From positions 8,929,964 to 8,993,963 of the forward strand of contig CM026431.1 in assembly GCA_014871385.1 (NCBI GenBank): a stretch of 64,000 bases of DNA. The letters are read 5' to 3'. Under the pieces are notes generated by a model. The model was not told where the DNA came from, did no database searches, and saw only the letters and a list, made by a program, of their open reading frames with translations. Position numbers and translations under genes: made by a program. Every line of letters starts with the position of its first letter. The stretch's first letter is position 1. Positions 2,099-26,159 of this stretch are shown here, one piece after another. This stretch comes from Ceratodon purpureus. Its lineage: Eukaryota > Streptophyta > Bryopsida > Pseudoditrichales > Ditrichaceae.

Positions 2099-2119
2099 CT
2101 GCCATCAAAACAAACATTC

Positions 2120-3677: not shown

Positions 3678-4055
3678 CTACAACAACAACAACAATAAAA
3701 AGAAACAAACAGTTAATAGTCAGAAAATATGATTTTAGAATACATGTCGCATTCAGACACAAACTAAAACCGGAGAAAATAACCTTAATCAGAACAGACT
3801 TATATTACACTGCAATTCATTTCAATTGATCTGACTAATGCAATGCGAAGCATAGACCTACTCAGAATACTATAACACTGACTCGTCAGATCCAGACTTC
3901 TAATTTTCAGTAACTTCCTAAACTAGAAATTGAAATGAATCCATTATCATTGCAATGTCTTCTATAACATAAACTGATATCACACACCCTAAGCAAATTG
4001 CATTGCATCAACAACTGACATAATAGGAAAACAGAATACAGTTTAGTGCACATAC

Positions 4056-4781
4056 CTTAGTGGGCGTTGCAGCCTCCATTCCAACGTTCGGCTCCAACTT
4101 CACCTTCACCGCAACATCAACCTTTAGACTCCTCCAAGTCCGCTTCGTCACCTTCGCTCCCGTGTTGATGGCAAATTGTAGCTTTGAGAGATCCTGTTCG
4201 TACTTTCGCCGCTGGCTATTATTCGTCTCTTGGCCATACAACGCCCAGTTGACCAAGTTCTTCTGGTACTCCAAGACTACGCCCACAGCGAACTGTTTCG
4301 TCACGCATCTCGGTATTTCTTCAGGTCCGTGTTGATACACGATTGGATGTAAGTACTTTATGCGGTTCACTATCTCCCGCACCTTGCAATCAGACCACGA
4401 GTATCCACCACGCCCCTTAACCCCCTCCGGCTTCAAACCGAACTCCAGCATCGTCTTGTCGCTAATATCCTTATCCTTCCGACAACGATGGGGGTTGATG
4501 GAGTTTGGGCCGCACTCCAGATCGTACCTGTCCCGGAAGTCCTCCCATGTTAGCACATCCGGAGGAGACTTCAGGCCGTCTATCAACTCCTGCAAGTCAT
4601 CGATGTCGAGAAAGCGCTCCTCCTCCTTCACGGACATCCCTAGCTGTTCACTGCCCCCAGACTTAGTCTTACCAACCTGCACTCCCATCCCAGATCCCGC
4701 ACTCCCTCTAGACTTAATCTTCCCATCCCTCGAAGTCGATATTACTCCCTCTAAACCCCCGGACTTGGACTTCCTCGACAT
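4056..4781 (-). CDS. Gene A, first exon: basic N-terminus plus shared 'VNWA' segment
   Basis: The ATG at 4781 opens a 242-codon exon on the minus strand that ends at a strong donor (CCCACTAAG|GTATGTGC). Residues 1-55 are basic and Ser/Gly-rich (MSRKSKSGG). Residues about 78-185 hold a compact segment beginning LTWEDFRDRYDLECG, with SWSDCKVREI and YLHPIVYQHG in the middle, and ending TKQFAVGVVLEYQKNLVNWA. Segments of the same order and spacing occur in TE-B gene B (VNWAEKA at residues 140-146), gene D (INWPKFA) and CACTA gene C (VSWAEFA). I infer one conserved domain of unknown function. Telo-box repeats lie about 35 bp upstream. The mosaic surroundings suggest that this gene belongs to a transposon whose left end lies outside the window. 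Confidence 0.6.
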
Positions 4782-5730
4782 TGGTAAACAATCAAGATCT
4801 GCGCCCTACCACTACCCTAAACCCTAAAACACTAAACAAATATTCCAACTCTTACCCAACACGACCAGCTGACCCTAATCGCAAAAACTGAATGGAAAAA
4901 AAACCTTAACTTCGACAAAAGAATATAACCCTAAATCCTCTGAAACAAACAGAACCCCTAAACAATGACACACAAACAACTGAAATCAAACCCCAGACCA
5001 AACCCTCAACACAACAAACGCATCTCACGACATTGGTAACTCTCAATCACTCTCTCCTTACAGAAAGCTCTATCCCTCAAACCCTGAAACCCACAATCTC
5101 TCTATCCCTCACAAAACCACCAACCCTCCATCTGAACTAACAACACAACAATAAACAAACAAAACAGCTAAACCTCCTCTCCAAAACTCTCAACTCATAA
5201 GCACATTGCTAAAACAAACCGTAAGCAAAACAAACGAAACTCACAAAAACTCTAACTCTCAACCCCTCTATCTCTACCAGCAACCTCTAACATTCAAACC
5301 CTCTAACAGTCGATCCCTCTATCCCTCACAAAACCCCCTAACCCTCCATCTGAACTAACAACACAACGAACAACATCATAACAAAAGACCCCCCTCTTCA
5401 AAACTCAAAACTTTTAAGCAAATTGCGAAACAACAAACACAACCGAGACTAGACCAACACCACCAACACCAACGAGACTGGAGAAATCTGGAGGTGCAAG
5501 ACGAAGACTACCGGCTACAGTAGGTGAGACCCAATCCGGTTACCTGAGACCACCGGTCAAGTCCAACGCTATTGGTCGATCTGAGCATGGGCGCAGGTGG
5601 ATCGCGGTGGTAATATCGACGGCTACGATTATCCAGAGAAGTACTAGAGATACTTACTAGCAGAAATGTACTAAAAAAGTACTTCACAAATCTGCCCAAA
5701 GTGTACCCGGTGTAGTGTACTCTCACCCTG
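4782..5730. promoter_or_regulatory. 5' flank of gene A with telo-boxes and a terminal AGTACT cluster
   Basis: There is no coding sequence here. Directly upstream of the gene A start lies CCCTAAACCCTAAA (4815-4828), a plant telo-box pair, and further AACCCTAA-type matches follow to about 5110. The middle is C/A-rich (many ACCCTC and AACAAA runs), as in an untranslated leader or promoter read on the minus strand. At 5636-5725 the AGTACT motif returns (AAGTACTAGAG, AATGTACTAAAAAAGTACTT, then GTGTAGTGTACTCTC). This patch may be the subterminal end of the element that contains gene A, but I could not identify a matching opposite end. Confidence 0.4.
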
Positions 5731-5894
5731 ACAACAATGTGATATTCTTAGTTCTCCATAAGAGGGGACATTTTTTGTAAGTGGTTTACTGCCACAATTT
5801 TGCAATGCTTTTCAATAAACATTGCACTTCCCAATTGCCCTCTTCTGAAATACATGCCCTCTCTTGTCATTTTGCCCGATGTCGCTCTTTCCCT

Positions 5895-6185
5895 ACTAAC
5901 CTGCAGCGCTCGCGCCCGACCGCCGGTGCCCGATGCAGCGCACTTACCCGAATGCACGCGCCCAATCCAGGCTCGCGCCCACATGACCGCGCCCGATAAG
6001 TGTGCTCGCGACCGTCAACTGGATCGCGCCCGCAGCGACGCTCGCGCCCGTTTGCATGCGCACGGGCGCGGCCGAAACGACGCACACGCCCGTGACATCG
6101 CGTTCGCGCGGACGCTCGCGCCCGTCGTCCTGCTCGTGCCCATCCGCTCGCGCCCGTAATGGCGCTCGCGCCCGCACTAATTCAG
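5895..6185. repeat. CpG-dense degenerate repeat (CTCGCGCCCG units)
   Basis: About ten imperfect copies of [C/G]TCGCGCCCG are spread over 290 bp, with several further CpG-rich variants between them. This makes a very GC- and CpG-rich island in otherwise moderate-GC DNA. All six frames are open over stretches only because of composition, and I see no convincing protein. Heavily methylated plant transposon DNA normally loses CpG, so persistence of this patch is notable. It lies downstream of gene D and just left of TE-B. Confidence 0.6.
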
Positions 6186-6429
6186 CGCTAGGTAAATTCG
6201 TTTTACCCTTACCGTGAGTCAACTGGTCAACGCCCTTATGTGACGGACACGGGGGTCTGTCTTGTCACCATGACGGACTAACGGACTAACGGACGGTCGG
6301 TCCATTATGACAACCATGATCTTCTAGCATCTCAACCACCGCTGTGCTCTGATCCTCTGACCACGAAGTTGGCTCACAGGTCGTTCTACCTTGACGTCGG
6401 TCCACACAAGAATTCGCACCGTGCCCTAC

Positions 6430-6686
6430 CTATCCCGAACACTGAATTTTCTGAAGCTCGTCCCACTTCGTGTGTAGAGCCTCCTCCACTCTGCCGTCCT
6501 TCTGCCGCAAAATGTATTGTTTCCGACAAACGTCGTGGGCAAATTTTGGCCAATTGATCTTAGCCTTCCCCTCCCTCTCTGCCAACCAACTCCTTAAAAA
6601 ATAACGTGCAAATTCTTTGTTAGGAGGAGCATGGTTGTACATAGCATGGTAGTGCTGCCAGATTTTCACCGCACTCCTTCTCTATA
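6430..6686 (-). pseudogene. Gene D, 3' part: shared domain with INWP core, cut off by TE-B
   Basis: Minus-strand codons just outside the left end of TE-B read RRSAVKIWQHYHAMYNHAPP, then NKEFARYFLRSWLAEREG, then KINWPKFAHDVCRKQY, followed by the start of a charged helix (RVEEALHTKWDELQKI) and a stop at 6430-6432. The pattern H..MY.HAP...F...FL......INW matches the VNWA-type segment of genes A, B and C. Its natural upstream half lies on the far side of TE-B (17399-17638), so the gene is split by that insertion. A splice-acceptor-like TTTTTCTCCTAATGTTATAG overlaps the TE-B terminus. No full-length product is expected unless TE-B is spliced out. Confidence 0.5.
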
Positions 6687-6727
6687 ACATTAGGAGAAAA
6701 ATCAAGTCACAAAAAGGCCGTGTAAGC
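6687..6727 (+). repeat. TE-B left terminal inverted repeat
   Basis: 41 bp beginning ACATTAGGAGAAAAAT and ending AGGCCGTGTAAGC. It pairs with 17358-17398 at 36 of 41 positions, and the five mismatches cluster in the middle. It lies directly beside gene D coding sequence. Confidence 0.8.
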
Positions 6728-7806
6728 GGCACGTGAGAGAAAAAAACGGGCGCTGCCCGCGTACTTTTTGACATGGCATTGGCTGTGCCACCGTGGTGCC
6801 ACCAACCGCCAGGGGGGCTCAAACCAATGACCTCCGAGCGAGGCGTGTGGAGGGCACATCTACAGTGCCGGGCTGACAGCGGACTGGCGGAGCAAGGACC
6901 AGATCCCGAGCCGACTGCTCATGTCAGCAAACTTTCTGCCAGCACTTTGAACGAGGAAATTATGAGTCCGCCCACCTACCTCCCCCACCGACGATGAGTG
7001 AGTGCCGAAGTTTTTGAACTTCGTAGGGAGAGTGAGTGCAGCCAGCAGGTGTTCGGCGCTACGGGAGAAGGCACGCACTTGGGAAATTGGTTGCAGCCAG
7101 CGGGAGTTGGGGCTGAGAGGATTCCAGCTGATTTGGGAGAGTGGGTGTGGGTTAGTGCGAAGGGAGAGACACATGATTGTGGAAATTCGGTGCCGGCAGC
7201 AAGAGTTAGCACTTGCTGGGAGTTGACTAGGTGATTTGGGGTTGTGGGTAATGTTCATGTAGCGAATTGTGCTTGAGTAGTTACTTGCCGAATCAAGGTG
7301 GAAGTGCGGCTTTCTTTGGTGTCAACTCGATGTGCCGTTTGCTGCCAGCGAGCTACAGAACTAGGTAATTTTTTTTTCAATATGATCAATTCCCTGTCTT
7401 GACATGATCCAAGCTTTTCTGCCTCCTGGGGGCAACGTTGTGACTAGGCATGAATTCCTCAAACTTCATCTCTGATTACAAACTCAGGATTTTCCTCTCC
7501 CCAAGTGCTTAAACTATGCAAATTTGATTTTCTCTGTGCTGGCACCATGTTCCCTCGCCTTGGTTGGTACGAAAGGGAGGTGTTATAGTTCATTTCTGTG
7601 TCTCCCAATACCTTGGGGTTTAGGGAAGCATGGCCAGACGGCCAAAATCGATAGTTCAGAGCGTAATTTTGCACAACGATCAAGATGTCCACGGCAATTG
7701 GATCCCAATGAGGCTGGACCGGGATTCGTGGGTTCTGCTGCAACCAAAGTCGGAAGGGCCTTGGGGTAGAGAGGCAAGGCGGCATGGTGGAGATAATTTT
7801 TGAAGG
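6728..7806. other. TE-B left subterminal region, no clear gene
   Basis: About 1.1 kb inside the left terminus has no protein I can support. It carries several motif copies (CTGCCAGCAC near 6936, GCTGCCAGCG near 7341, GTGCTGGCACC near 7537) and variants such as CAGCCAGCAGG. Some of it may be leader or early exon sequence of the plus-strand gene at 7807. Confidence 0.4.
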
Positions 7807-8868
7807 GCCTTCAAGGCTCAAATCGTGGATTTCTCATGGACACCTGGTGTGCGTGGAGCAAGCAACCTGGATAAGGTGCTTGTTCGGCATGCGTATCAGC
7901 CTCGCCAATTAAGCTTGGATCCCGCTGTGGCAGCAAGTAGGCAATGCACGGCAAACTACCTATACTCCTCGCACTTTGATGATTGGGTGCACCCCACGTC
8001 TATCATCAGTCCCATTCTTGTGCTCCATGCAGAGATTGGGGAGGCGACGCGGAATGGTCGAAGCCATACAGACTTGTTGGACATGGGTACATTCTTCCTT
8101 GGTGGCGTATATTTTCCCCCCGTAGAGCCTACGTTGTACGGGAGGATAGAACCAATCCCGCTCCCTGGTTTCAACGACGTGGAGTGGCCTTTGCCAGACA
8201 TGCACACCTCCGAAGCCTTCAGGACGAAGCTGACAGCAGATTTTTCGAATGCGATGAAAGCGTCCACTGGCAGTAGTTTCGCCCATGAGCAATGGTTTAT
8301 GCCTGTCCATGTTATGGTGGACTTGTTTGCGATCGCATGTGACAGCATTCAGCGGACTCCTACACTCTTCGTTCTACACTCTCCGTCGGAGGCACTCCTA
8401 AGTAGTCTGATGAATCCAGGATGGGCTGAGAAGTTTCACATTGGCCAAGATGTTATCAAGTGCGTTGTGAATAGGTCCAGCGTTGTCTTCAGGTACCATG
8501 TGGGCAGGCAAACACTATACACGAGGTTCCAGTATACAAGGTTTCGGGGTGCTGCCAACAACAGATGGGATGCAATTGACCATCTACCAGAGGTGGAGAT
8601 GGTAGAAGTCTGCTGTACATTTAGAGGGAGACCAATGCCAGCATTTGAAGTGGGCAAGGACTGGCCTGTATCCCACTTGCGCCATGAAATTGCAATGACG
8701 CTCGGAGACGATGATCCCAAAGAGTACAACATGGTTCTGGTGGAAGCAGACGGTTCACGTGAAAAAAAGGTACATGTAAGCAGCATCACCCCATTGGTTT
8801 TAGATATGGAAGGTGCTGCTGCTTGGTATCAGCATAATTGTACTAACGCATTTTGTTGGAGGCATTGA
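7807..8868 (+). CDS. TE-B protein with probable ubiquitin-like C-terminal domain
   Basis: The frame is open on the plus strand from about 7804 to a stop at 8868, roughly 350 codons. No ATG lies near the 5' end (it reads RAFKAQIVDFSWTPGV), so this is probably an internal or last large exon. The body is not recognised: a globular, Trp- and Pro-containing region with LDMGTFFLGGVYFPPVEP and EQWFMPVHVMVDLFAIACDS. The C-terminus reads RPMPAFEVGKDWPVSHLRHE, then IAMTLGDDDPKEYNMVLVEA and DGSREKK. This has the strand-strand-helix-strand rhythm of a beta-grasp, ubiquitin-like fold. After AAG|GTACATG an intron ending at TTGATGTAG near 8874, with a perfect TACTAAC branch site, would extend the product in frame (INIRNERRVLLGEV) to a stop at about 8958. 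It lies in the same element as a RING-like protein. Function is unknown and the UBL call is tentative. Confidence 0.5.
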   Translation, partial: AFKAQIVDFSWTPGVRGASNLDKVLVRHAYQPRQLSLDPAVAASRQCTANYLYSSHFDDWVHPTSIISPILVLHAEIGEATRNGRSHTDLLDMGTFFLGGVYFPPVEPTLYGRIEPIPLPGFNDVEWPLPDMHTSEAFRTKLTADFSNAMKASTGSSFAHEQWFMPVHVMVDLFAIACDSIQRTPTLFVLHSPSEALLSSLMNPGWAEKFHIGQDVIKCVVNRSSVVFRYHVGRQTLYTRFQYTRFRGAANNRWDAIDHLPEVEMVEVCCTFRGRPMPAFEVGKDWPVSHLRHEIAMTLGDDDPKEYNMVLVEADGSREKKVHVSSITPLVLDMEGAAAWYQHNCTNAFCWRH

Positions 8869-9525
8869 TGTAGATCAACATACGTAATGAGAGGCGTGTA
8901 CTTCTTGGTGAGGTGGCGGTTCCCAAAACCATCAAGATAGTGGAGGTGTAGGACAACGACGTTTTCACCACGGCATTAAGGTGGTCTATTAGTGTCTTCA
9001 CAAGTCTGCCTACAGTATTTGAGATGACTCCATGTTTCACTAGACCAATGCCAGAATGATTATTTATAGTTGTAAGGGTGTATGCATTGTGCTTGACACA
9101 TCATGTATGGTACTTATATGGTCAATCATGTAACCTTCCCCCTTGATGAATGAAAGTCTTCCTCTAGAACATGTTGCTGTCAGCACACATTAGGGTTCAC
9201 GACCAAGGCGACTTCCATACCATCACGACCAATGTGGCAGCCACATGTACAAGATAGAAATAAAAAAGGATAACATTCATCATAAGTATCGAAAAAAAAT
9301 GAGGTTCGGTTTTTTTAAAGTCTGACCCCAACACTCCCCCCCCCCCCCCCCCCCCCCCCAATCGGAACTACTTACACAGTGCTGCCAGCAACTACTTGCT
9401 GGCACCGCAGCTGTGAAAATAGAGTCGAAAATCAGGGCAGCAAATGCAAATGCAACGTGGCACAAACTAATAGCCACTAATACTAATCCGCTATGGCACT
9501 ATGAACCAAAAAAAAACCACAGACT
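8869..9525. other. Spacer between convergent TE-B genes, with a poly-C run
   Basis: The 3' side of the plus gene and the 3' side of gene B face each other here. A homopolymer of about 24 C lies at 9336-9359, followed by a paired motif GCTGCCAGCAACTACTTGCTGGCA at 9379 onward, one of the densest motif sites. No gene is seen, apart from the possible small 3' exon of the upstream gene at 8875-8958. Confidence 0.5.
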
Positions 9526-11436
9526 CTAAGCCTCTACTGAGGTCGCGATGGCATCAACCAGCTTCTCCAGGGCAGCTCCAGCCGGGTCTTGAGATGTCCC
9601 CCCGGACTCGGTGGTACTGGAGCTGAGTCCACCACCATGAGTGGCTGTGTCCTCGGCCTCCCGGCGTGGAGGGGCTTGTGTCCCCCGCTGGAAGCTGAGG
9701 TCATCTGACTTCTGGGTGCTCGCAACACCACCGCCATCCCCTCCATCTGCTGGCAGCACGGCCACGGATACTAGGGGCTGAGCGGAGATCTTGGCGATGA
9801 CATACGGACCCGAAGCCTCGGACTCCTCCAAAAAGCGAGTCTTCTTCTTGACTTGGTTTTCCTCCCCCAAAGGAGGAGAAGAGCGCTCAGCGGCTCTCTT
9901 GCTGCCAGCAACGGGGCTCTGGACGTTTGGGGCTCCCACCTCGGACTTGAGAACCTCAAGGAGGTGCTGCAGCTCCGCTTGAGCCGACTCATGCAGTGGA
10001 AATCCCCATTGCCCAAGCCATCCCCCACTCAAGGAGCGGCAGCAACGGCTACACTTGGCGTCAAGGGAGAAGACAACCTCAAACATGCAATGTGGGTGTG
10101 CCAAGCAGCCGCAGTTCAAGAGTACACAAGCAGCGTCAACAAAGTACCGCGCACAAAAGGGGCAAGGGTCGGAAACCTGAATGGGGAGGGCTCGAAACTC
10201 GGATGGCAGGTGTGGGAGCACACTCTTCGGGCGAATGAATGCCGCTGCCAGCTCCAGGGTCATGATCTCCACGCTAAGAGCACCAATCTTGGCCTTGCAC
10301 CTCTCTATGTCCCCCATCAAAGCATCCATCTGCTTCTCCTTCTTGTCAATGCGAAGCTGGGCTTCTTCGGCAGCCTTGCTCGCATTGGCCATCTGATCAC
10401 CACCTAGACGGGCCAGAGCATCCAATCGCTTCTTCTCTGCCGTGTTGCCAGCGGCCGCGGCTATCTTGCTGGCAGCACGGTGGGCAGCTATCTCCTCATA
10501 GAACCGGCCCTCCTCATCCTCCTTCTCCTGCATAAAGGTCCTCTGGTTCTTGATATCTCCAAGAAACAACTCCCTCTGAGCCTCCTTCTTCGTGAGCTCG
10601 GCCTGAAATCTCGCCTTCTTGGCCCTGGCCTGGTCCAGCTTCGCCTTCGGATCCGTGCTGGGTCGGTCTTCATCCTTGCTGCCAGCAAGTGAAGACTTGG
10701 GCAAGCTCTCCTCCTCAGTGATCAAGGGCGCCTTCGACTTGAGGTGGCTTTGAGTGCGACCCCGAGCTCCCTCTGCTGCAGGCGCTCCCTTGCTCCTGCT
10801 CCCCGTAACAAGGACCCCGTGGCTAGGTCCGATGCCGACTCCCTCAATGGCCATGACCGTGTTGCCAGCAGAGGGTTTGTCGTCGATGTGGCCAGCGAGC
10901 ACGTCGATGAGGGCCTCGATCTGCTCTCTGAAGGCTGGGGGTGTGAGCTTGAGAGGGTTGCGGGCATCTTTCTTATCACGTGCCTTCTGCAAGGTCGCGG
11001 CTTTCTCTGCCCAGTTGACGTCTTCGCCCAGCTCGAAGGTCAGATGGCAGCCTCGCAGGAAGGAGGTACCAAATGTCCCGTTGTCAGGGCCTTCACCTCC
11101 ATACACCTTCGCATGCTGGAGTGTGTAAGCCTCGACAGCCTGCTTGTCGGTGCAGTCAGCAATGTGGTGGCGCCCTCCATGTCGTTCCGGCCACCTCTTA
11201 ATGAACAAGGATTTCTTGCATACCTTGTCACTGCTGAGCTCGGTGAAGGATATCCCTTCCTTGCAGAGCCCAAGTGCACGGTTGAAGAAATCGACGTCGT
11301 AGTTTGCGCTCTTCCTACCAAGAAGAAAGGGCGCCATCACCACGGCCTTGTCCGCCACATGCTGCGGTAGAGCCTTCATGTCGAAAGGGAGGTCCCACTG
11401 CATGAGAACACCGTCGTCCTTGCTGCCAGCAACCAT
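9526..11436 (-). CDS. TE-B gene B: 'VNWA' domain, coiled coil and RING-like finger
   Basis: A single open frame encodes 636 residues on the minus strand. I chose the ATG at 11436 (MVAGSKDDG). An upstream in-frame ATG adds six residues but sits across a TTGTGTTGCAG that could be a splice acceptor. Residues about 40-150 form the shared segment (SANYDVDFFNRALGLCKEG, ADCTDKQAVEAYTLQHAKVY, FLRGCHLTFELGEDVNWAEK). Residues about 265-395 form a long charged coiled coil. Residues 425-466 hold a RING-like cluster (CPFC, NCGCLAHPHC, KCSRCC) followed by GGWLGQWGFP. The C-terminal 150 residues are disordered and basic, with KRAAERSS and KKKTR resembling nuclear signals. The AGSK/AGN peptides repeat because the TE-B DNA motif lies in the coding sequence. 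The architecture parallels gene A. It may be an accessory protein of transposition or anti-silencing, which is inference. Confidence 0.7.
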   Translation of the reverse strand: MVAGSKDDGVLMQWDLPFDMKALPQHVADKAVVMAPFLLGRKSANYDVDFFNRALGLCKEGISFTELSSDKVCKKSLFIKRWPERHGGRHHIADCTDKQAVEAYTLQHAKVYGGEGPDNGTFGTSFLRGCHLTFELGEDVNWAEKAATLQKARDKKDARNPLKLTPPAFREQIEALIDVLAGHIDDKPSAGNTVMAIEGVGIGPSHGVLVTGSRSKGAPAAEGARGRTQSHLKSKAPLITEEESLPKSSLAGSKDEDRPSTDPKAKLDQARAKKARFQAELTKKEAQRELFLGDIKNQRTFMQEKEDEEGRFYEEIAAHRAASKIAAAAGNTAEKKRLDALARLGGDQMANASKAAEEAQLRIDKKEKQMDALMGDIERCKAKIGALSVEIMTLELAAAFIRPKSVLPHLPSEFRALPIQVSDPCPFCARYFVDAACVLLNCGCLAHPHCMFEVVFSLDAKCSRCCRSLSGGWLGQWGFPLHESAQAELQHLLEVLKSEVGAPNVQSPVAGSKRAAERSSPPLGEENQVKKKTRFLEESEASGPYVIAKISAQPLVSVAVLPADGGDGGGVASTQKSDDLSFQRGTQAPPRREAEDTATHGGGLSSSTTESGGTSQDPAGAALEKLVDAIATSVEA

Positions 11437-12552
11437 GGCTGCAACACAACACACACTTGTAAACCTTGACAGTAGCTGAACTTAAATAGAAGCACTCTAA
11501 GTCCTATAAACAATGAAGTAGGAAAGAGGGTATATGCAATGTTTACCTTCCGAGGTCACAGCAAGCACTATAGCAACACGTGAGGAAAGCTTCTTCCATA
11601 CAGTTCATCACACATTCACAAAAAAGAACTTCACAGAACCATTTAACTTGAATGGCACCCTGACTACTCTCTGAAATTTGAATTTAAAAAATCCTGGCAG
11701 CTGATGTACTGCTGTCGCAAGCCATGGGGGGGTTTGGTTACCTGATCATTGCAGCCCTCTTTCTCTCCACCGAGCTGCCTGGCGCGCTCCTTCAGTCGCC
11801 CTCCACCGAGCTGGGCCACCGAGCTGCGCACCTCCACCGACCAGCGCACCTCCACCAACTCGTGCCCTCCGCGACCTCTCCACCAAAGCGTGCCGTCCGC
11901 GCCTCTTCGTCGATCTTCCTCTGCCGTCGGGGGGCGCAAGCTGCTCTCCACAGCGTCGCCTTAAGAGCGAGCTCTCCGCAAGCTGCCGACGGAGCTGCCT
12001 GGCGTCCTCCCTCTTGCAGCCTCCGTCGCGTCCTCGCCTCCTCGCCTCGCGTTGCCGAGGGCCTCCCTCCTGCAGCTACTCCGCTGCGAGCTCCATCTCC
12101 GGCGTCGGGGAGGTGGCGTGCTGGCAACAGTGGAGCAAGAGGGGGGAAGCGAGGCACTCCTCCCCCTCTCCATACCACGCGGGTATAGATGCCGCGGTCA
12201 TAGGTGAATGACTGCGGAATTACTGTACCCCCTTCAAATTGTCACGTCACCTTTCTTTTATATTTAAAAAATGATCATAAATTCTGAAAGTAATTCGAGG
12301 AAATTGAGAAAAGTTTTTTAAATTTTTTTTAAAAAAGGGACAAAAGAAGTTTTAAAAAATGGGGGATAAATATAAAGAATGGAGGGGAAAGAGAATAAAA
12401 TTAAATTAAAAAACAATGGGAGGAAAAACATAAAGAATGGAGGAAAAAAATAAAGAATGGGGAAAAAAAAAAGGAAAGGGAGAAAAAGAAAAAAGAAAAT
12501 TGTATCTCCAAAAAATGGGTAGAGAGAAAAAGAAAAAAAAAAAAAAAAGAGG

Positions 12553-12584
<32 letters not shown>

Positions 12585-13451
12585 AACCCAGAAAACAAAT
12601 GATGAGAGATAAGAGAATTCTCTCAAGTTGGAAGGAAAACAAAATCTAAACAAAAACCAAAATGGGAAAAAATAGAATAAAAAATAAATAAAGATAAAAA
12701 CTCCAAAATAAAAAATAATGAACGGTAAGAGAATTATCTGAAATTGGATGGAAAAAAATAAAAGAAAGACAATATAAAAACCAAATGAAAATAAAACCTT
12801 ATTTGAGCTTTGAAATTAAAAAGATAAAATTTTTAAAAAAAAAAAAAAACATACAACACGATAAAAATCTAAACAGAAAATAAAAACCAAAATGAAAATA
12901 AAACCTCACTCGGAAATTTTAAAAATACTTGACTATTGGAAAAAAATAAGAGATGTCGGGGAACTAACTAAATCTAAAAATGAAAAGGGAAATAAATATA
13001 AATAAAAAAACAAATTAGTAAGTTAGTAACCAGAACAAGAAAGGGTCTTAAATAATAATTTGTGGGACTTAAATGACATGGAGACATAATCTAAACCAAA
13101 TGAAATTTAACCCTTATTTAGCGATTTCAAAAATACTTAAATGCGGGGGAATAAAAAAATAAAAGATAAAAGAATTATCTGACTCTAATTTGTCTGAGTA
13201 TGGACGATGTTTCCTTGACTATGTATTCGCACATGTACTAAATTTTGAGAGTGAATTGCCTAAATTTTTGAATTTTTTAATATTTTTTTTAATGAAAGTG
13301 TACATTTGAAGACAATTTAAGCGTTCATGTAACTACTCGCTTCACTATCCTCTCTATAGAATACAGTATCTTTGAAAGGCATTACTTCTTTATAACATTA
13401 CCCTTCTACAAAACATTGTATACCAAAAAAAACTCCATGACTCTGAGCTCC
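11437..13451. other. TE-B internal non-coding spacer: GC-rich patch and A-rich tract
   Basis: Upstream of gene B the DNA is first ordinary (to about 11730). It then becomes a GC-rich patch at 11740-12190 with repeated GAGCTGC, CTCCGTCG and CGCACCTCCACCGA phrases; long frames there reflect composition. From about 12240 to 13370 the plus strand is extremely A-rich, with degenerate tandem phrases such as TAAAGAATGGAGGAAAAA and AAATAAAAACCAAAATGAAA. I see no gene. The GC-rich patch may be the promoter and leader of gene B. Confidence 0.5.
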
Positions 13452-16400
13452 CTAGTCGCTGTCAGCATGTGCAATGTCGACATCGGGGGCAATATCCTCC
13501 CCGGCACCCCTATTGCCAGCATCCGCGATGTCCTCATCGTTGTTAGCAGCGTCCCTCTGTTCATCTTCCTCGCCCCCACTGCCAACCATGTCCCCGTTGG
13601 CATTCCATTCCTGCTCTTCTTCCATCATCCAATCTCCTTCGTCCTCCATGACTTCTTCAAGAACATATGCTCGTCCAACACGCCTCCTCCTTGACCTCCA
13701 CTCCTGGCAGGCAATGGCAGCGTTTGATTGTTGCCACCGCTCGCGTCTGCTGGCCGCCTCAATGGCCCGTGCTCCGTCATCCGGGTCAGGTACAGCTCCC
13801 TGGATTTCCATTTTTTTCCTATATCGATGTTGTATGTTTCGGTACCAATGCTAGATCTGCTGGAGAATCGCACTAGTACGGGCTTTTCCACCACCATGGG
13901 CTGTATGTGCCTGATGTGCTGCCTTCGCTTGGTGGTGTGATTTCTCCATGCCTTGGCAGCTCCACACTCCAAGGCTCCCATAGTGTTCCACAAACCAAGT
14001 GGAGTGCCGTACAATTACGTGCTGTCAACAAGAAGAAGGAAGTTAAAAGCCGGATACTTAGGTCAAGTAGACGGTTCACTGAAGAAACACCAAAAGCAAC
14101 AACAGACAGAGCCGGGAGCATACCATATAATGGGTAACATGCTCCTCTCCGAAGGCCTTTAAGTATGCCTTTCCCCACTTGTGTATCTTCTGCTTGAATT
14201 GCATCCGTTGCTCTGCTGTCAACACCAGTCCTGTCAAATATGGTACGACATCTTCAAAGGCTTGCCACATCTGGTACTTTGCAATGAGGTCAGCCCCACT
14301 CCCGGCATTATTATTCTCAGCTTGACATATATCCTTCCAGGCCTTATCATTTCCAGACCAAACGCTTGGCCTAAAAAGCCTGCTGGCAACGGTACCACTC
14401 AAAGAGGGTTTTTGCGGCACGTTTCCGGTGTTGCCACTGAGCTTGGGGTCCCTCTTAATCTCCACGTTTCCACCATGAGCCCCAATCGCGGACAACGACT
14501 TCTCCATCTGTTCAATTGCAGTAGCCCTCAGTCTCTGATTCTGTATGTTCCAAACATACATGATATGCATGTGCACTATCTTCTCCGTCAATCGAACCAA
14601 GGCATGCAATGTACAAATGTGTACTCTGGACAAAGGAATCGGCAGGATAGGCCTCCACCTAGTAGATGTTGCCATGTCACAAGATTCCTCAGGTACGCTG
14701 CTGGAAAATAGCCCCCCCACCCAGTTTGCTTTACCACGGCTCTTGATGGCAGCGTTTGCCTGGCTTGCTGTCCCCACAGTAGGCTTTATCCTCTTCTGGT
14801 CGCAATATATGCAGTTCATTGCACACGACGGCCCTGACTGGAGCCCGTACATACACTTGATCGTCTTCATGTCCGCAGCAAGATGCCACTCCACCTGGAA
14901 TTCTCCAACTTCGGGGACCGTGAGTTTCTCGCCACTTGACTGCGCTGCTATCACAGCCGGGATGTTCGACTTTCCAAATATCCACGAGAGAACATCGTAG
15001 GACTCCTTCTCGACCTGAAACGTGGCAACTGGCCAAATCTCCTGCTCTGATTGTACTGAGAAGTACCTCTCGTGGTCCACCTGAATGTTAGTGTCCAGAG
15101 CCCGATTCATCAATGTGATGCTAACACGTTCAAATTTCCGTTAATAATCTCTGCCTCATCCAGCTTGAGGACAAATATTAACGGAGCCCCTTCCAACTCT
15201 GCAAGAATATCCTCACGTGAGAATGTTTCTGTAATGCAATCGAATTAGCTTCCATTGTTAAACACATACAATGCAGTTGCTGGCACCAAACGGACATTCA
15301 CCATTGCTGTCAACAAGAGCAGAAGAGGCTTCATACCTGACTCCGTGATGCCATAAAAGATCACCATGCTCTGCTGGACCACCTCAAGGTCCGTGAATAG
15401 CGAGTTTTTTTCATCTAAGACCACCTCCTTTCGCTGCTCCTCAGATTTCTTGGTTTTCTTTGACACTGCTGGCAGCTCCATCCTTCCCTCAGCGTGGTAG
15501 TACTGGCCAATGAATTGTGGCAAGTTCGCATTTAGCTCCTGCCGAAGCCTTTTGACGTGGTAGGGACTAGGTAGTATGTTGGATTTGGCATCCTTGCCCA
15601 AATCCCGAACTGGAGCCTTCACGGCTTGGTAAATTGCACCATAACCTTTCAAGGACACCCCTGCTTGGTCGCAGGCAGCAAGAATATTACTCGGCCCTAC
15701 CCTTTTTCCAATTGCCTTCATGACGTTAGTAGCAATCTTTCTCTTAACATGCTCCATAGATGGCTGAGTTGCGAGGGTGAGACCTTCATGCCTAGTCAGT
15801 ATCTTTGCTAACGCTACAGCAGTTACTGTTTGGGAGGCTTTATCCCCATGAAGTCGCTGTTTCTCATGGTTGACCCGGTTGTTGTCGTTGACAGCATCCA
15901 CGAGATGAGGTTGCAAATGCGTCCTAACGAGCTTCACTCTGCGTTTTGCCCACCCTGAACCATGATTCAATTCATGAATCCCCCTGAGCGGTCGAGCCCT
16001 ACGTCGCATCCCCATAGGCGTGTCCTTCAAAGGGCTAGGCCCCTCCGGTAGGCGCTCACTTGCTTGCTGCCAGCGACGCACCTCGGTCTCCAAGCCCTGC
16101 ACCGTCACCCTATGATTTCTCTCCATGCTGCTCATCTCGGTTCGAATAGTCTCCAATTGAACCCGCAATTGCATGCATGTATCCTCAATGTCCCTGTTAT
16201 GGTCGAGCCTCTCTCGGCTGCCAGCAAGGTCCTCTCTCACCTTGCCGAGTTCTTCTTCTAAATGTCGGCACTGCATCTCCATCTCACTCCTTGTAGGTCC
16301 TCCTCCATCAACGAGACCCAATCTGCGTGCATATCCATACAGACCTTGCTCTCCATGACATATGAATTCCAGGCAATCTCGAAGAGTTCTGAATGGAGGT

Positions 16401-16534
16401 GGCCTCCCTGTTCCTGGATCAACCGGGTAAATGCTGCCATCGACCCACAAGTCAATGTTTGTATCCCCGGCTGCCCTCCGTCCTGGAAATGTTGATGGGC
16501 AGGGTTGCTCGGATCTCAATAAACCTCTCCTCAC
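13452..16534 (-). pseudogene. TE-B transposase, RAG1-like DDE layout, with zinc-binding insert
   Basis: Exons on the minus strand are 16534-15337, 15228-14124 and 14021-13452, with good splice sites (GAGTCAG|GTATGA, TTGCATTACAG, CATTATATG|GTATGC, TTGTTGACAG). The N-terminus is coiled-coil and basic. The catalytic core shows LIFVLKLDEAEI (first acid), VATFQVEKESYDVLSWIFG (second acid), then FQVEWHLAADMKTIKCMYGL with MNCIYCDQ (CxxC), CTLHALVRLTEKIV, GEEHVTHYM joined to HVIVRH, and EHYGSLGVWSCQGMEKSHH (third acid, Glu). This order, including the Cys pair and the GSLGVWS..GMEKSH end, parallels RAG1 (first Asp, second Asp, CxxC, ITNYFHKTL..H, DGSIGAWASEGNES). Two defects are visible: a one-base frame change near 15145, between LDEAEIING and ERVSITLMNRAL, and an in-frame TAG at 13851 before an intact acidic tail. 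The copy is therefore probably inactive. Superfamily assignment is tentative. Confidence 0.65.
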
Positions 16535-17357
16535 AAGTGGTGCGTAGCGTGCATCAATCCAACATGGTAGCTTGAAGGCTCCACCCCTGGTGTTGCCATC
16601 GAGAGTTCAAAATTCCGAAGTAGTGATTCAAGCTCTCAAGGCCCCGGATCGACCTGGAAGTATGCAGAGAATCGTTTTTAAGATTGCCATATACCCAAAA
16701 CCGCAGAGTTCACAACAACCAAACCCTATACCATAGCCACTCAAGGAAATTGCAGGATCAAATGAATAGCATGCAATGTACAAATGCACGACCCAAACTT
16801 GTCATAGAGAAATTGACACTTACACAACCTCTTCAGTCCACGGCAGGAGGTGTTGCAAGAACACCCTTCGAATGTTTGCTGCTCGAGTTTGTAACTGCTG
16901 CCAACGCGTATCTGCACAATCATGCTCACTGGTTTAGTTCTCACAATTTCCCCTGACTCTCTCGAATTTCACCTGCGAATTGGGTCGTTGGTCCTGCAAC
17001 ACCAAAATTCTAAGCACCCAACTTCGATTCACCCCATTCCCAGGTGGGGAGACCAACCTACTGTCGACCGAGCTCCATGGCTTCTTCCCGTTGTGGCAGC
17101 AAACTTCAAATCTTGAAACGGTTGACACCAATCTCCCGTCATCTCTCCTTCGAATCGGGCTTTAACTTCAATAAATGGGAGAAGGCGTGGTTCACCAAAC
17201 AAGGCAGCCACCTCGGCGCCACTAGGCACACCGACCCGCCCCGCAACCCCTTCCCGAGACCATTAAGTCGCCCTATTAACTCTGCGGGCAGCGATCCTGG
17301 CACCCGCTGCCAGCGACAGTGCCGCATTTGGGCAGGGAGTTCACCTAGAAAGGGCAG
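16535..17357. other. TE-B right subterminal region, probable transposase 5' exons and leader
   Basis: Between the transposase N-terminal exon and the right terminus, short minus-strand frames exist, but none can be tied to a protein family. The motif appears at 17308 (CGCTGCCAGCGAC) and, as variants, near 16899 and 17089. Upstream splice exons of the transposase may lie here. Confidence 0.35.
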
Positions 17358-21280: not shown

Positions 21281-21880
21281 GGGCTCCCCTCGCGACCAGC
21301 CAGCCTCGAAGTCGAGGACTGGCTAGGCAGATCTCGGCCGTCGATCGCATTCCTCCACGTCCATCAGAGTTTGGGTGGGGTTCCGCGAGTGAGCTGGCTG
21401 TCAGGAGAATGCTTTCCGGCTGTCAGGACGTGCTCTAAACATAAATGAAATTGAAATGAAGAATTGAGTTGTAGGTGAAATTTCAAATTACTCTAGTCTC
21501 TATTACGTTTCATAAAATAACTCATATGCTTCAAAAAAATGAGAATAAATTTCAAATAAATTTTAATTTAATTTAATTTAAAGCTTATGGAAGTTTATGA
21601 AATTTGAAATAAAAATATTTTGGTCCATGCCCATACCACTACTCCAAACCCTCCTACCCAAGCCCTCCCCAACTGCTCAAATTCCATGCCCATGGCCCCA
21701 TGCCCCCATGCCCCCATACCCCCATGCCATCGTTACATGAAGCATTCTCCTGGGACCTGACAGCCAGCTAACTCGCGGAACCCCACCCAAACTCTGATGG
21801 ACGTGGAGGATCAACCAATTGCGATCGACGGCCGAGATCTGTCTAGCCAGTCCTGGCTGGCTGTGACGAGGCTCGGCTCC
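21281..21880. mobile_element. Foldback element upstream of the patatin gene
   Basis: The segments 21281-21418 and 21738-21880 are inverted copies of each other over about 140 bp with a few indels. They share blocks such as GACTGGCTAG-CAGATCTCGG, GCCGTCGATCGCA, TCCACGTCCATCAGAGTTTG and GGTGGGGTTCCGCGAGT. The loop between them is AT-rich and contains CCCATGCCCCCATG repeats. The GC-rich arms contrast with the AT-rich loop. No target duplication was found. It ends about 690 bp before the patatin-gene start codon and could act on its promoter. Confidence 0.6.
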
Positions 21881-22568: not shown

Positions 22569-25500
22569 ATGTTGATGGCTGGTGAAAAGTCTAACGTCCA
22601 GCCTGCTTCGTCCAGCTCCAGCGAGGTTTCGCCTGAAGAAGATGACGTTGATGGAAACGTCCTGTCTTCGCCTGACGTGGAGCCGATCATGTGCTCTGAG
22701 TGCACTAAAACGCCGGCATCTTGTTTTTGCCCCAAATGTGGTGAGAGCGGTGTACCATTGTGCGAAGAATGTGATAGAGTAGTAGTACACAATTCTCGCG
22801 CAACTCGTAGTCATGAGCGTATGCCGATTCACGAGCACCGTATTGTAGAGATTTGCATGGGCAGTTCCTCGCCCACAGATGACCAAATATGCTTGGATGA
22901 GTACAACAACAAGTTATTCTTCTTCAGTCCGATTGATCATCGCATCCAATTGCTGCCACGACTTGGATCGTTGGTAACAGATCCAGATATGCGACCATCT
23001 TTGGTGACGTTCATCGGACCCACCGGCGTCGGCAAAAGCACCTTAATGCGAATGCTTATTTCCTTAGAAGGTGTGAGTGACCCCGGCCTTATGCCTCTGG
23101 CTGGTGCACCGGACAATCCACAATCAACGTCAGCCGACGTTCACATTTACGGTGGTGGTCAATTGCGGACCTCATCAGACGTACCACGTCCCGCTGTCGA
23201 TTCAACATATCCACTGCTCTATCTTGACAGCGAAGGAATCAGAGGCGCGACGGAGCCGCGCTGCATCAGTAACTTGTGGGATAAGGTCAAGAGTTTATAT
23301 GGACATATAGAAGAAAAGAACAGAGGAGAATTTCTAAAAAAACGCTCCGAGCACGTTCAAGCATCGTATCCACGCATGCTGTACAACTTTTCAAGCGTCC
23401 TCTGTTTTGTCTTTTCAGGCAGCTGCAAGGAACGAGAATCCATCGTGGAACCATTGTTGGAATGGGGTGAGTCAGCCGCTGCCGGAGCGGCAAATCAGCA
23501 TCGTCCTCAACTGATTATCATCTTTAACAAGACAGGTCCAAAGACCACACAACCTGTGTTCAATGATTCTCGAGTGACATACCAGAATTGGATAGCGGGA
23601 TATAAGAACGTCGGACAAAGCAAGGACGACAAAATTCTTGAGTACTACTACTCGGATCCGCGAGTCATTCACATTTGTCGGAAGGAGGTCGATTCTCCTA
23701 CATTTTTGCGTCAAGTGAAAATACTTCGTAAGGAAATTCATGACTCTTCCAGGGCTATTCGAACATCTCGAGAGAAGACGAATCAGCTCTTCACCTGCCG
23801 ACAGCTTCAGAACCTCATGCAGCTTGCGGCTGACACCTTCAGCGACAATTCAACCGGAGATTTTGATCTGTACAAGGCGAGCATGGCTAGGAGACCTATC
23901 GCCGTTGGACTTGAAGGGTTCATCTTCGAGTTTTATCGAGGAGTTGAGCAGGCCGCGGACACGCAATGCCGTAGCAAATTAGAGAGATATCGGATATCGC
24001 TCAGTGTGCTCCATGGGCTGATCGGATGGTCAGTGCTCCTCTGGATGGCCCGCTTGAATGAAAACTTTCCGGTTGGTGCGAATGCCCAACTACATGAAAA
24101 GGTTCGGGAAGCACTTGAAAATGCTCAAAAGACGATTGATGGGGAGGAGCCGTGTGCTGCCGTCTCGTCCGCTGGCCGTCCCTGCGATGTAAATCGTGTA
24201 ATGCATGAATCAGCGACGATTGATAGGGAGAAGTCGTGTGCTGCCGTCTCGTCCGCTGGCCGTCCCTGCGGTGTAAATCATGTAATGCATGAATCAGCGA
24301 AAGAGCAATGCCATGTCACCAGGCTAATAGATGGAAAATCTGATGTGTGGAAGGGAGTATTCACTTCGGATCCCAATGTGAAATCAGCAGCAGAGCAATG
24401 TAGGCTCGTCACTCTCGCGGAAAGCGCCCTCCGGACTGCAACAACACTTGATGTTCAAGTGATTCGGAGGTTGCTGTCTGAAGCGGCCCAGAGGTCTGAG
24501 TATGCCGAGCTATTGAAATCTTCGGACCTCTTCTATCACGTCTGTGTAAGCTGCATGGTGGACCTGCCGACGGAGATGCTTTCATGTGGCCACATTATCT
24601 GTGCCATGTGTGCTAAGGAAGTGACGACCGAGCCGCGCTTGTCCAAGATCATCGACTTGAGATGCCCCGTTTGTCTCTCACCGAATTCCAAGTGGTATCC
24701 CAATGATCTACCCCCGTTGGCGGGATACCGCATCCTCTCATTGGACGGTGGAGGCGTCCGTGGCATCGTCGAGCTGCTCGCGCTTCAAGAAATAATGTCC
24801 TACTTTCCCGAGATGCATATCGAAGATCTTTTTGATATCGTCATTGGCACGAGCACGGGGGGCATCATCGCGCTTGCACTTACTGCACACAAACTCAATG
24901 AGAAACCTAAGCGCCTGCCGGATGTGATTGTCCTTTTCGAGGAGTTGGTTAAAGAGGTTTTCTCTTCCAAAATGTTGAGTTTGCCGGTATTAGGGTCGAA
25001 TTCCATTCTTTCGCGGTTATTCCAGGCCTTGAGGTTTACCGATTCAAAATATAAGAACGAGAACCTGCTGATGCTTCTGGAGAAACATTTTGGAAAAGAG
25101 TCGATGCTACGCAGCTGTGTCGGTGGGCCGCATGTTATCGTCACAACATTGGATCGTGACCCTAAGGCCGTTGGTGCATGGTTCACTTCTTATAACCGCC
25201 CGATGCAGAAGAATAAGCTCGACGAGTTGTTTCAGCTTGAATGCGGAGCGGATTCAAAGGACTGCGCTGGGCGGGTCCCCAATAACCATCTCTTCAGCCC
25301 GAAAGATGCCGCTGCAGCAACATCAGCAGCGGGCACTTATTTTCCAGCCTATAAGGCTAACGGCAAGTTCTGGATTGATGGTGGTTTGCGATACAACGGC
25401 CCGGCAGGAATCGCCATCGAAGAAGCCCGGACCATGTGGCCTGGGCGCGGTACAAGTGCCCTCATATCTCTGGGTTGCGGTCGACCTGATTCTGATAAGA

Positions 25501-26159
25501 AGATCAAACCACAGCTCAGTTTTCATAATAATGTGCGCCTAGTAGTGGACGTCGCAACCGATGCCGAGTCACAGATCAGTAAGGCCATAAATGATTTTGA
25601 AAGGCTCCAGCCTGGTTCGCGTAGTGTCCGCCTCAATCCGAAGCTACGCAAGGGTAAAAAATATGAACTTGATGACGCGAGCAAGCTACCTGACTTGAAG
25701 ACTTTGACAAAGGAGTACCTCGAGACGCATGAAGGACGTGCCAAAGTTCAGAATGCTGCCAACGTTCTCTTTGCAAACCTCTTCTACCTGGTCGACGGCA
25801 ACGATCGGGACTCACTGGTACCCAAGCCCAACATGATAAGCATTCGGAGTCGCTCTGCTTTACCGGAAAAATTGCGAGCCGTCCTCACTGATGCACCATT
25901 CCCTCCATTTTCTGTCAAAGTGTGTGAGGTTGCCGGCGCCATATCTGAATTTAGGACAGATCAGTTGACGTGGGAGTTCCATTCATCCTCAGCGGCGGTC
26001 ATGAATCTTCCATTCATCCTCAGCGGCCTTCCCGCAAAACGACCGCTGAAGGTCGAGGTAAAGCTTAATGCGTTCCTGACCACTAAGGATAGAAAAACTG
26101 CACCAGAGGGATGGTCCGGGCTACCTATCAGTGGAATGTCATATTTTCTCCGTTCCTAG
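22569..26159 (+). CDS. B-box-like / GBP-like GTPase / RING / patatin phospholipase multidomain protein
   Basis: A single uninterrupted frame encodes 1196 residues from ATG 22569 (MLMAGEKSNV). The frame is open for 65 more codons upstream, but these look like leader sequence. Residues 42-90: Cys/His cluster CSEC...CFCPKC...CEEC...H...H, B-box-like. Residues 145-400: large GTPase with P-loop GPTGVGKST (150-158), LYLDSEG (DxEG switch of the GB1/GBP class, about 217-223) and IIIFNK (316-321). Residues 522-577: two copies of a 28-residue repeat. Residues 659-702: C3HC4 RING (C659, C662, C673, H675, C678, C681, C699, C702). Residues 719-1010: patatin domain with oxyanion loop DGGGVRG (726-732), nucleophile elbow GTSTGG (Ser762) and catalytic DGG (Asp937), so the Ser-Asp dyad is intact. 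Predicted action is lipid acyl hydrolysis gated by GTP binding, with possible ubiquitin ligase activity. It is markedly more GC-rich than its flanks. Absence of introns and a fungus-like architecture make horizontal origin possible. Confidence 0.9.
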   Translation: MLMAGEKSNVQPASSSSSEVSPEEDDVDGNVLSSPDVEPIMCSECTKTPASCFCPKCGESGVPLCEECDRVVVHNSRATRSHERMPIHEHRIVEICMGSSSPTDDQICLDEYNNKLFFFSPIDHRIQLLPRLGSLVTDPDMRPSLVTFIGPTGVGKSTLMRMLISLEGVSDPGLMPLAGAPDNPQSTSADVHIYGGGQLRTSSDVPRPAVDSTYPLLYLDSEGIRGATEPRCISNLWDKVKSLYGHIEEKNRGEFLKKRSEHVQASYPRMLYNFSSVLCFVFSGSCKERESIVEPLLEWGESAAAGAANQHRPQLIIIFNKTGPKTTQPVFNDSRVTYQNWIAGYKNVGQSKDDKILEYYYSDPRVIHICRKEVDSPTFLRQVKILRKEIHDSSRAIRTSREKTNQLFTCRQLQNLMQLAADTFSDNSTGDFDLYKASMARRPIAVGLEGFIFEFYRGVEQAADTQCRSKLERYRISLSVLHGLIGWSVLLWMARLNENFPVGANAQLHEKVREALENAQKTIDGEEPCAAVSSAGRPCDVNRVMHESATIDREKSCAAVSSAGRPCGVNHVMHESAKEQCHVTRLIDGKSDVWKGVFTSDPNVKSAAEQCRLVTLAESALRTATTLDVQVIRRLLSEAAQRSEYAELLKSSDLFYHVCVSCMVDLPTEMLSCGHIICAMCAKEVTTEPRLSKIIDLRCPVCLSPNSKWYPNDLPPLAGYRILSLDGGGVRGIVELLALQEIMSYFPEMHIEDLFDIVIGTSTGGIIALALTAHKLNEKPKRLPDVIVLFEELVKEVFSSKMLSLPVLGSNSILSRLFQALRFTDSKYKNENLLMLLEKHFGKESMLRSCVGGPHVIVTTLDRDPKAVGAWFTSYNRPMQKNKLDELFQLECGADSKDCAGRVPNNHLFSPKDAAAATSAAGTYFPAYKANGKFWIDGGLRYNGPAGIAIEEARTMWPGRGTSALISLGCGRPDSDKKIKPQLSFHNNVRLVVDVATDAESQISKAINDFERLQPGSRSVRLNPKLRKGKKYELDDASKLPDLKTLTKEYLETHEGRAKVQNAANVLFANLFYLVDGNDRDSLVPKPNMISIRSRSALPEKLRAVLTDAPFPPFSVKVCEVAGAISEFRTDQLTWEFHSSSAAVMNLPFILSGLPAKRPLKVEVKLNAFLTTKDRKTAPEGWSGLPISGMSYFLRS
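24132..24299 (+). repeat. 84-bp tandem duplication inside the patatin-GTPase gene
   Basis: Units 24132-24215 and 24216-24299 differ at only five of 84 positions and encode two 28-residue copies of TID.E..CAAVSSAGRPC.V. The frame is kept. The units sit in the linker between the GTPase and RING domains. The low divergence means a recent, copy-number-prone duplication. Confidence 0.9.

What the first reader, a model, noticed from the sequence alone, without database searches (positions are those of the whole stretch)
22569..26159. One protein joining B-box-like finger, GBP-like GTPase, RING and intact patatin phospholipase
Seen directly: P-loop GPTGVGKST, LYLDSEG, a full C3HC4 RING and the patatin motifs DGGGVRG, GTSTGG and DGG in one 1196-residue intron-free frame. 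Known: patatins act as effectors in several immune systems, GB1/GBP GTPases restrict intracellular pathogens, and RINGs are ubiquitin ligases. Inference: a GTP-switched, ubiquitin-linked phospholipase effector, a combination unlike ordinary plant patatins. It could be an immune sensor-effector and could be horizontally derived, for example from fungi, given the lack of introns and higher GC than its flanks.
Basis: partly seen in the sequence, partly recalled or inferred. Interest (0 to 1): 0.88.

Follow-up and report, generated by a model that had tools for sequence, protein, structure and literature searches.

The report
Moss GTPase–RING–patatin lipase fusion protein
A moss gene makes one large protein that joins a GBP-like membrane GTPase, a RING finger and a membrane-lipid-cutting enzyme, a combination otherwise seen here in many ascomycete fungi and some social amoebae, which makes it a candidate cell-death or immune effector worth testing.

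The parts
22569..26159 (+). Whole coding sequence, 1196 residues plus stop, one uninterrupted frame
   Evidence: full-length match in own genome; relatives
22692..22814 (+). B-box-like zinc finger, residues 42-82
   Evidence: pattern C-x2-C-x8-C-x2-C-x7-C-x2-C-x5-H-x7-H, 0 of 5000 shuffles; family profile hits TRIM28 and Midline-1 B-boxes only weakly, 0.0095 and 0.092; a like pattern in the intact C1 copy and in 35 of 125 rows in all, 90 rows (several truncated) without it
22893..23900 (+). GB1/GBP-type large GTPase domain, residues 109-444
23016..23039 (+). P-loop (G1) GPTGVGKS, residues 150-157
   Evidence: K156 in 89 of 93 and S157 in 89 of 93 aligned rows
23226..23237 (+). G3 motif DSEG, residues 220-223
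   Evidence: D220 90/91, E222 91/93, G223 91/92; that DxEG is the G3 of the GB1 type is recalled
23526..23528 (+). N320, near-invariant position at the end of the G4 strand
   Evidence: N in 99 of 100 aligned rows
23901..24143 (+). Helical middle region, residues 445-525
   Evidence: helices in model
24131..24298 (+). 84-bp in-frame tandem duplication, second copy 94% identical, doubling the knuckle region
   Evidence: no second copy in the three moss-type relatives of alignment A1
24153..24206 (+). Conserved C-C-H knuckle (C529, C539, H546), putative zinc site
   Evidence: 122/122, 122/122, 123/123 aligned rows
24543..24674 (+). C3HC4 RING finger, residues 659-702
   Evidence: first seven ligands 123-124 of 124; eighth ligand C 47, H 59, other 18; TRIM34/TRIM5/TRIM21 RINGs in profile search
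24726..25784 (+). Patatin-like phospholipase domain, residues 720-1072
24852..24854 (+). Predicted catalytic Ser762 (GTSTG)
   Evidence: 123 of 124 rows
25377..25379 (+). Predicted catalytic Asp937 (DGG)
   Evidence: 124 of 124 rows
25803..26156 (+). C-terminal beta-domain ending in the ISG tail motif, residues 1079-1196

Best explanation
It is an intact, probably functional moss gene of a eukaryotic protein family in which a GB1/GBP-type dynamin-superfamily GTPase is fused to a RING and a patatin phospholipase. Most likely mechanism: nucleotide binding makes the GTPase heads dimerise and assemble on a target membrane; assembly concentrates and activates the patatin domain (Ser762/Asp937), which hydrolyses membrane phospholipids, while the RING (with B-box) adds ubiquitin to itself or to the target. 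The outcome would be membrane damage, a lipid signal or cell death, most plausibly in defence. Shown: intact frame, domain order, folds (predicted), catalytic and zinc residues, conservation, relatives. Inferred: nucleotide-driven assembly, activation of the lipase by it, E3 activity, role in defence.
For: Architecture and folds. Catalytic dyad and RING and knuckle ligands kept in nearly all rows of the 124-row alignment. The lipase domain scores 3e-39 against PADLOC's phospholipase effector (that this is a CBASS effector is recalled) and resembles CapV, solved as a cGAMP-bound filament. [quoted passage not shown] Receptor-like evolution: more than one protein from single named fungi in the listings (Cenococcum P0005, P0095, P0108; Xylaria arbuscula P0027, P0090; Glonium stellatum P0023, P0104; Fonsecaea erecta P0007, P0051), extra C-terminal stretches of over 100 residues in 30 of 86 rows that have the tail motif, ankyrin or ankyrin+SPRY there in some, and copies gained and broken in the moss. 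Constraint: dN 0.48, dS 1.05 against the intact paralogue. A patatin domain is essential for cell death by the fungal NLR PLP-1 (passages of PMC10197012).
Against: No expression, biochemical or infection data. At the position of the GBP arginine finger (recalled: R48 of GBP1) no row of 92 has Arg (Gly in 67, this one included), and the G4 'RD' (recalled) is replaced by Asn in 99 of 100 rows, so GBP-style hydrolysis and guanine specificity are not assured. By sequence profile the G domain hits ExpZ, BMS1 and SMG9 first, with no GBP among the 60 chains shown of 289. In RNF112 the E3 and GTPase activities are unrelated to each other, so coupling may not exist. The eighth RING ligand is neither C nor H in 18 of 124 rows. 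P0075 has lost the P-loop. Ankyrin modules are rare: 4 of the 120 proteins listed, three of them from Fusarium. dS is near saturation, so dN/dS is rough.
Confidence: 0.5

Rival explanations
1. A housekeeping membrane-remodelling enzyme: the GB1 GTPase tethers or shapes an organelle membrane (as atlastin or RNF112 do) and the patatin trims its lipids, e.g. lipid droplets or ER, with no defence role.
Against: Patchy distribution and copy turnover and occasional ankyrin/SPRY modules do not look like housekeeping. Transmembrane segments were not looked for.
Confidence: 0.25
2. The gene reached mosses by horizontal transfer from fungi.
For: Same architecture from the GTPase onwards in many ascomycetes; Ceratodon the only named plant in the list.
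Against: Moss lies outside all 34 sampled ascomycete-type rows in both half-protein trees; three tested placements rejected. A rooted patatin tree also leaves moss outside a 16-row ascomycete clade (95/91), although it resolves little else and one ascomycete row, P0100, on a very long branch, also falls outside. GC and lack of introns are uninformative (one comparison gene).
Confidence: 0.12
3. Horizontal transfer into mosses from a non-ascomycete donor such as an amoeba or other protist, or an unsampled fungal lineage.
For: Moss rows group with dictyostelid-type and three unnamed rows (99/99 and 100/100); no other named plant in the list; moss shares DSEG with the two named dictyostelids and two of the unnamed rows, and FNK at G4 with all three unnamed rows, where the other 114 rows have Cys in DxEG in 81 of 84 aligned and mostly LNA at G4.
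Against: At G4 the dictyostelid-type rows have CNK, LNR and LND, not FNK. Long branches; trees unrooted; few rows outside ascomycetes; ancient presence with losses elsewhere in plants would look the same.
Confidence: 0.45
4. A decaying gene or pseudogene on its way out.
For: Two of four copies in the genome are frame-disrupted; recent internal duplication.
Against: Window frame open over 1196 codons with all catalytic residues; dN/dS about 0.40-0.46 against the other intact copy; the internal duplication keeps the frame.
Confidence: 0.1

Closest known systems
Ascomycete 'FabD/lysophospholipase-like' and unnamed PNPLA proteins (e.g. Cenococcum P0005, Lasiosphaeria P0008, Fonsecaea P0006)
   Same: GTPase, knuckle, RING, patatin and tail in the same order over about 1170-1310 residues; same catalytic and most zinc residues
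   Different: 24-26% identity; mostly DCEG at G3; eighth RING ligand often His; B-box pattern not in all; some carry ankyrin or SPRY additions; a separate clade
Dictyostelid proteins (Polysphondylium violaceum P0031, Dictyostelium purpureum P0043)
   Same: GTPase, knuckle, RING, patatin, tail; DSEG at G3, NK or NR at G4
   Different: 27% and 23% identity
Human GBP1 / atlastin (GB1/RHD3 dynamin superfamily)
   Same: Fold of residues 109-444; DxEG at G3
   Different: No arginine at the finger position, Asn in place of the RD motif (GBP1 motifs recalled); extra RING and patatin
RNF112
   Same: GB1-type GTPase plus C3HC4 RING in one chain
   Different: RING is N-terminal; predicted transmembrane helix; no lipase
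CBASS phospholipase CapV and animal iPLA2beta
   Same: Patatin fold and dyad; closest profiles
   Different: CapV binds a cyclic nucleotide; no GTPase or RING
Fungal patatin NLRs (PLP-1 type)
   Same: Patatin effector plus nucleotide switch in one protein; the patatin of PLP-1 is needed for cell death (passages of PMC10197012)
   Different: Switch is NB-ARC in nearly all (passages of PMC4986451 and PMC12258605), patatin is N-terminal

Membership tests
Patatin-like phospholipases (PNPLA) | Pfam Patatin over curated cut-off | tested here: met
   72.6 bits against 27.7
Patatin-like phospholipases (PNPLA) | Glycine-rich loop, GxSxG serine, D-G-G aspartate | tested here: met
   DGGGVRG 726, Ser762, Asp937; 123 and 124 of 124 rows
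Patatin-like phospholipases (PNPLA) | Lipid hydrolysis | not testable with these tools
   needs assay
GB1/RHD3 (GBP/atlastin) GTPases | GB1 fold of the G domain | tested here: met
   [not shown]
GB1/RHD3 (GBP/atlastin) GTPases | DxEG at G3 and GxxxxGKS at G1 | tested here: met
GB1/RHD3 (GBP/atlastin) GTPases | Arginine finger in the P-loop | tested here: not met
   position 153 is Gly in 67 and Arg in 0 of 92 rows; register to GBP1 R48 recalled, not computed
GB1/RHD3 (GBP/atlastin) GTPases | RD motif at G4 | tested here: not met
   strand ends in F-N-K; N in 99 of 100 rows; register inferred by eye
GB1/RHD3 (GBP/atlastin) GTPases | Pfam GBP/Dynamin family match | tested here: not met
   none at E up to 1; filed as GB1-like by fold, not as a GBP
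RING E3 ligases | C3HC4 ligand set | tested here: met
   all eight ligands here
RING E3 ligases | Pfam RING over cut-off | tested here: not met
   16.9 of 27.9 bits here, 25.7 of 27.9 in the Ceratodon paralogue
RING E3 ligases | E2 binding and ubiquitin transfer | not testable with these tools
   needs assay
TRIM proteins | Contiguous RING, B-box, coiled coil (recalled) | tested here: not met
   B-box-like finger and RING are separated by the GTPase
Fungal patatin NLRs | NB-ARC or NACHT switch | tested here: not met
   G domain is GB1-type; no NB-ARC/NACHT Pfam match

The most novel reading that the evidence does not exclude
An undescribed class of eukaryotic intracellular immune receptor-effector, shared by ascomycetes, amoebae and mosses, in which a GBP-type GTPase takes the place of the NLR nucleotide switch and drives a CapV-like patatin, with RING/ubiquitin control and, in some members, added C-terminal sensor modules; mosses acquired it from a non-ascomycete microbe and it has since diversified by duplication and decay.
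Probability: 0.28. Interest if true: 0.87.

Novelty: new variant of a known kind. Interest (0 to 1): 0.62.

Why it matters
GBPs, RING ligases and patatin lipases are each known from immunity, but ten searches of the open library (listed under Tried and rejected) showed no description of one chain holding all three. If the GTPase switches the lipase, it would link the animal GBP strategy (assembly on membranes) with the bacterial CBASS strategy (assembly-activated patatin; recalled) in fungi, amoebae and a plant. The family-wide Asn at G4 and the missing arginine finger also pose a clean question: what nucleotide does this GBP-like switch read?

Tried and rejected
Chance or artefact: rejected; frame, motifs and relatives agree.

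Contamination by a fungus: rejected. The window lies inside a 17.2-Mb contig of a 362.5-Mb assembly, related copies sit on a 29.0-Mb contig whose length equals that listed for Ceratodon protein P0003, and a CACTA-type transposon lies nearby.

Bacterial or viral source of the whole protein: not found. All patterns used came from the patatin part, so this does not exclude G-domain relatives. The viral fold library gave patatins and separate GBP- or atlastin-like proteins; no fusion is named there, but a 1127-residue Hokovirus patatin was not examined.

Third protein search with alignment A3 at E <= 1e-10: 3 hits including the query, no new taxa.

Papers: ten searches. Five returned nothing; none of the titles listed in the others describes this architecture. 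Of four papers I saw passages only. The library lacks most subscription journals.

Not tested: membrane anchors, expression, introns of relatives, homologues in unannotated plant genomes, GTPase-only paralogues in the moss. PF28431, precomputed for many rows, was not reported by the Pfam copy I scanned; I do not know what it is. In one search the frame picked for a second comparison gene (L172) was not its patatin frame, so only L173 is used.

Rows dropped: first tree 123 of 124 (coverage filter); careful trees 44 rows chosen by hand out of 125, with P0004 filling 20% and P0054 46% of the N-half columns; one search used 27 family rows and 15 (12 prokaryotic, 3 viral) of 160 loci, and L008 was dropped as too short; A4 used 80 of 124 proteins. 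The five long proteins were picked partly because one search showed ankyrin or SPRY in three of them; a sixth (P0058) was left out for size.

I left the odds as they were.
Full report
WHAT IS THERE. The frame at 22569-26159 (+) is open for 1196 codons. GC over codon positions is 0.546/0.431/0.528. From the N-terminus: a B-box-like finger (42-82), a large GTPase (109-444), a helical stretch, a C-C-H knuckle (529-546), a C3HC4 RING (659-702), a patatin domain (720-1072) and a beta-rich C-terminal domain (1079-1196). An 84-bp tandem duplication (24131-24298, 94% identical) doubles the knuckle region in frame; the three moss-type relatives aligned do not show it.

WHOSE IT IS. The window is G000 contig C11, bases 8929964-8993963, of a 362.5-Mb assembly. 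Contig C1 of that assembly has 29,001,003 bases, the contig length listed for the Ceratodon purpureus protein KC19_1G107900 (P0003), and two C1 copies encode P0003 at 100% over 943 residues. The organism is therefore, by inference, Ceratodon purpureus, a moss. C1 carries three further copies. L010 is intact: a stop-to-stop frame of 1219 codons with B-box and P-loop, 47% identical to the window protein over 1108 aligned codons. L009, about 27 kb away, is identical to it over the roughly 1.1 kb aligned except for a 16-bp deletion that removes the strand leading into the DxEG motif; the database model P0003 begins after that point. L011 is about 96% identical to L010 in DNA but has a 35-base gap and an in-frame TAG. 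dN and dS between window gene and L010 are 0.48 and 1.05 (NG86) or 0.48 and 1.20 (YN00): constraint, with dS near saturation.

RELATIVES. A full-length search gave 8 proteins including the query. A search with residues 640-970 gave 448 hits, of which 120 were listed: the query, two unnamed proteins at 61 and 63% identity, the Ceratodon protein at 56%, then, from E 1e-30 downwards, ascomycetes, the dictyostelids P0031 and P0043, and unnamed proteins. No named plant other than Ceratodon is on the list; this is not proof of absence, since only 7993 candidates sharing exact words were scored and 328 hits were not shown. Of 124 proteins, 98 fill more than half of the G region. Conservation: P-loop K 89 of 93, DxEG E 91 of 93, N320 99 of 100, knuckle C529 122/122, C539 122/122, H546 123/123, Ser762 123/124, Asp937 124/124; the eighth RING ligand is C in 47, H in 59 and something else in 18 of 124. 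RING and patatin agreement is partly due to how the rows were collected.

ORIGIN. Careful trees of 44 rows were made separately for the C-half (495 columns) and N-half (525 columns). In both, 34 ascomycete-type rows (30 named, and 4 unnamed counted with them) form one side of a branch (99/99; 100/100), 4 moss-type rows form a clade (100/99; 100/98), and the moss rows group with 3 dictyostelid-type and 3 unnamed rows. P0002 and P0004 are called moss-type, and P0075 dictyostelid-type, from similarity and placement; their sources give no organism. Forcing moss with Wilcoxina (P0100), Morchella (P0106) or the P0010 clade is rejected on the C-half. The N-half tree has many long branches. A patatin-only tree rooted on 15 prokaryotic and viral rows keeps the family together (100/99) but resolves little within it: moss 85/45, 16 of 17 ascomycetes 95/91, with P0100 on a very long branch outside. 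So a donor among sampled ascomycetes is unlikely; transfer from another microbe, or old presence with loss, remain open. The GC and intron arguments do not discriminate: the one comparison gene (L173, an ordinary patatin of this genome) has its patatin domain in one open frame of 419 codons with GC 0.566, against 0.502 here.

MECHANISM. Shown: domains, folds (predicted), catalytic and zinc residues. From established work: dynamin-superfamily GTPases of this fold assemble with nucleotide (recalled); RNF112 dimerises through its GTPase domain and is an active E3, with the two activities unrelated to each other (passages of PMC12012479); patatin in the fungal NLR PLP-1 is essential for cell death (passages of PMC10197012), and patatin NLRs use NB-ARC switches in nearly all cases (passages of PMC4986451 and PMC12258605). 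Inference: nucleotide-driven assembly activates the lipase at a membrane, with ubiquitin as a second output. Signs of receptor-like evolution are copy turnover in the moss, more than one protein from single named fungi, C-terminal extensions over 100 residues in 30 of 86 rows with the tail motif, and ankyrin (P0081, P0107) or ankyrin plus SPRY (P0019) modules in 3 of 5 long members scanned; these five were not a random choice, and ankyrin is precomputed for only 4 of the 120 proteins listed, three of them from Fusarium. Against: no Arg in any of 92 rows where GBPs have an arginine finger, and N320 where they have RD (GBP1 motifs recalled, register by eye), so catalysis and base specificity may differ from GBPs.

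VERDICT. A real, intact and conserved architecture for which I found no description.

Noticed in passing
window 43506-47999 (+): CACTA-type transposon with Transposase_21 (6e-71), DUF4218 and, just below cut-off, DUF4216.
   Followed up: partly
window 2751-3677 (-) and 9526-11481 (-): Two ORFs of 308 and 651 residues with RING-like cysteine/histidine clusters but no Pfam match over cut-off; part of a run of mostly minus-strand ORFs at 574-16606 that may be mobile-element genes.
   Followed up: no
window 21315-21854: Inverted repeat with arms of 35 and 55 nt, 97-98% complementary, just upstream of the gene; may be a small non-autonomous element.
   Followed up: no
L009 and L010 (G000:C1:8717000-8726999 and 8744000-8753999): Near-identical copies about 27 kb apart; one carries a 16-bp deletion at the G3 motif, and the database protein model starts after it.
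   Followed up: partly
P0019, P0081, P0107 (fungal relatives): C-terminal ankyrin repeats, in P0019 also a SPRY domain.
   Followed up: partly
[not shown]
   Followed up: partly
BFVD hits: Giant viruses carry separate patatins and GBP/atlastin-like proteins with the folds of the two halves.
   Followed up: no
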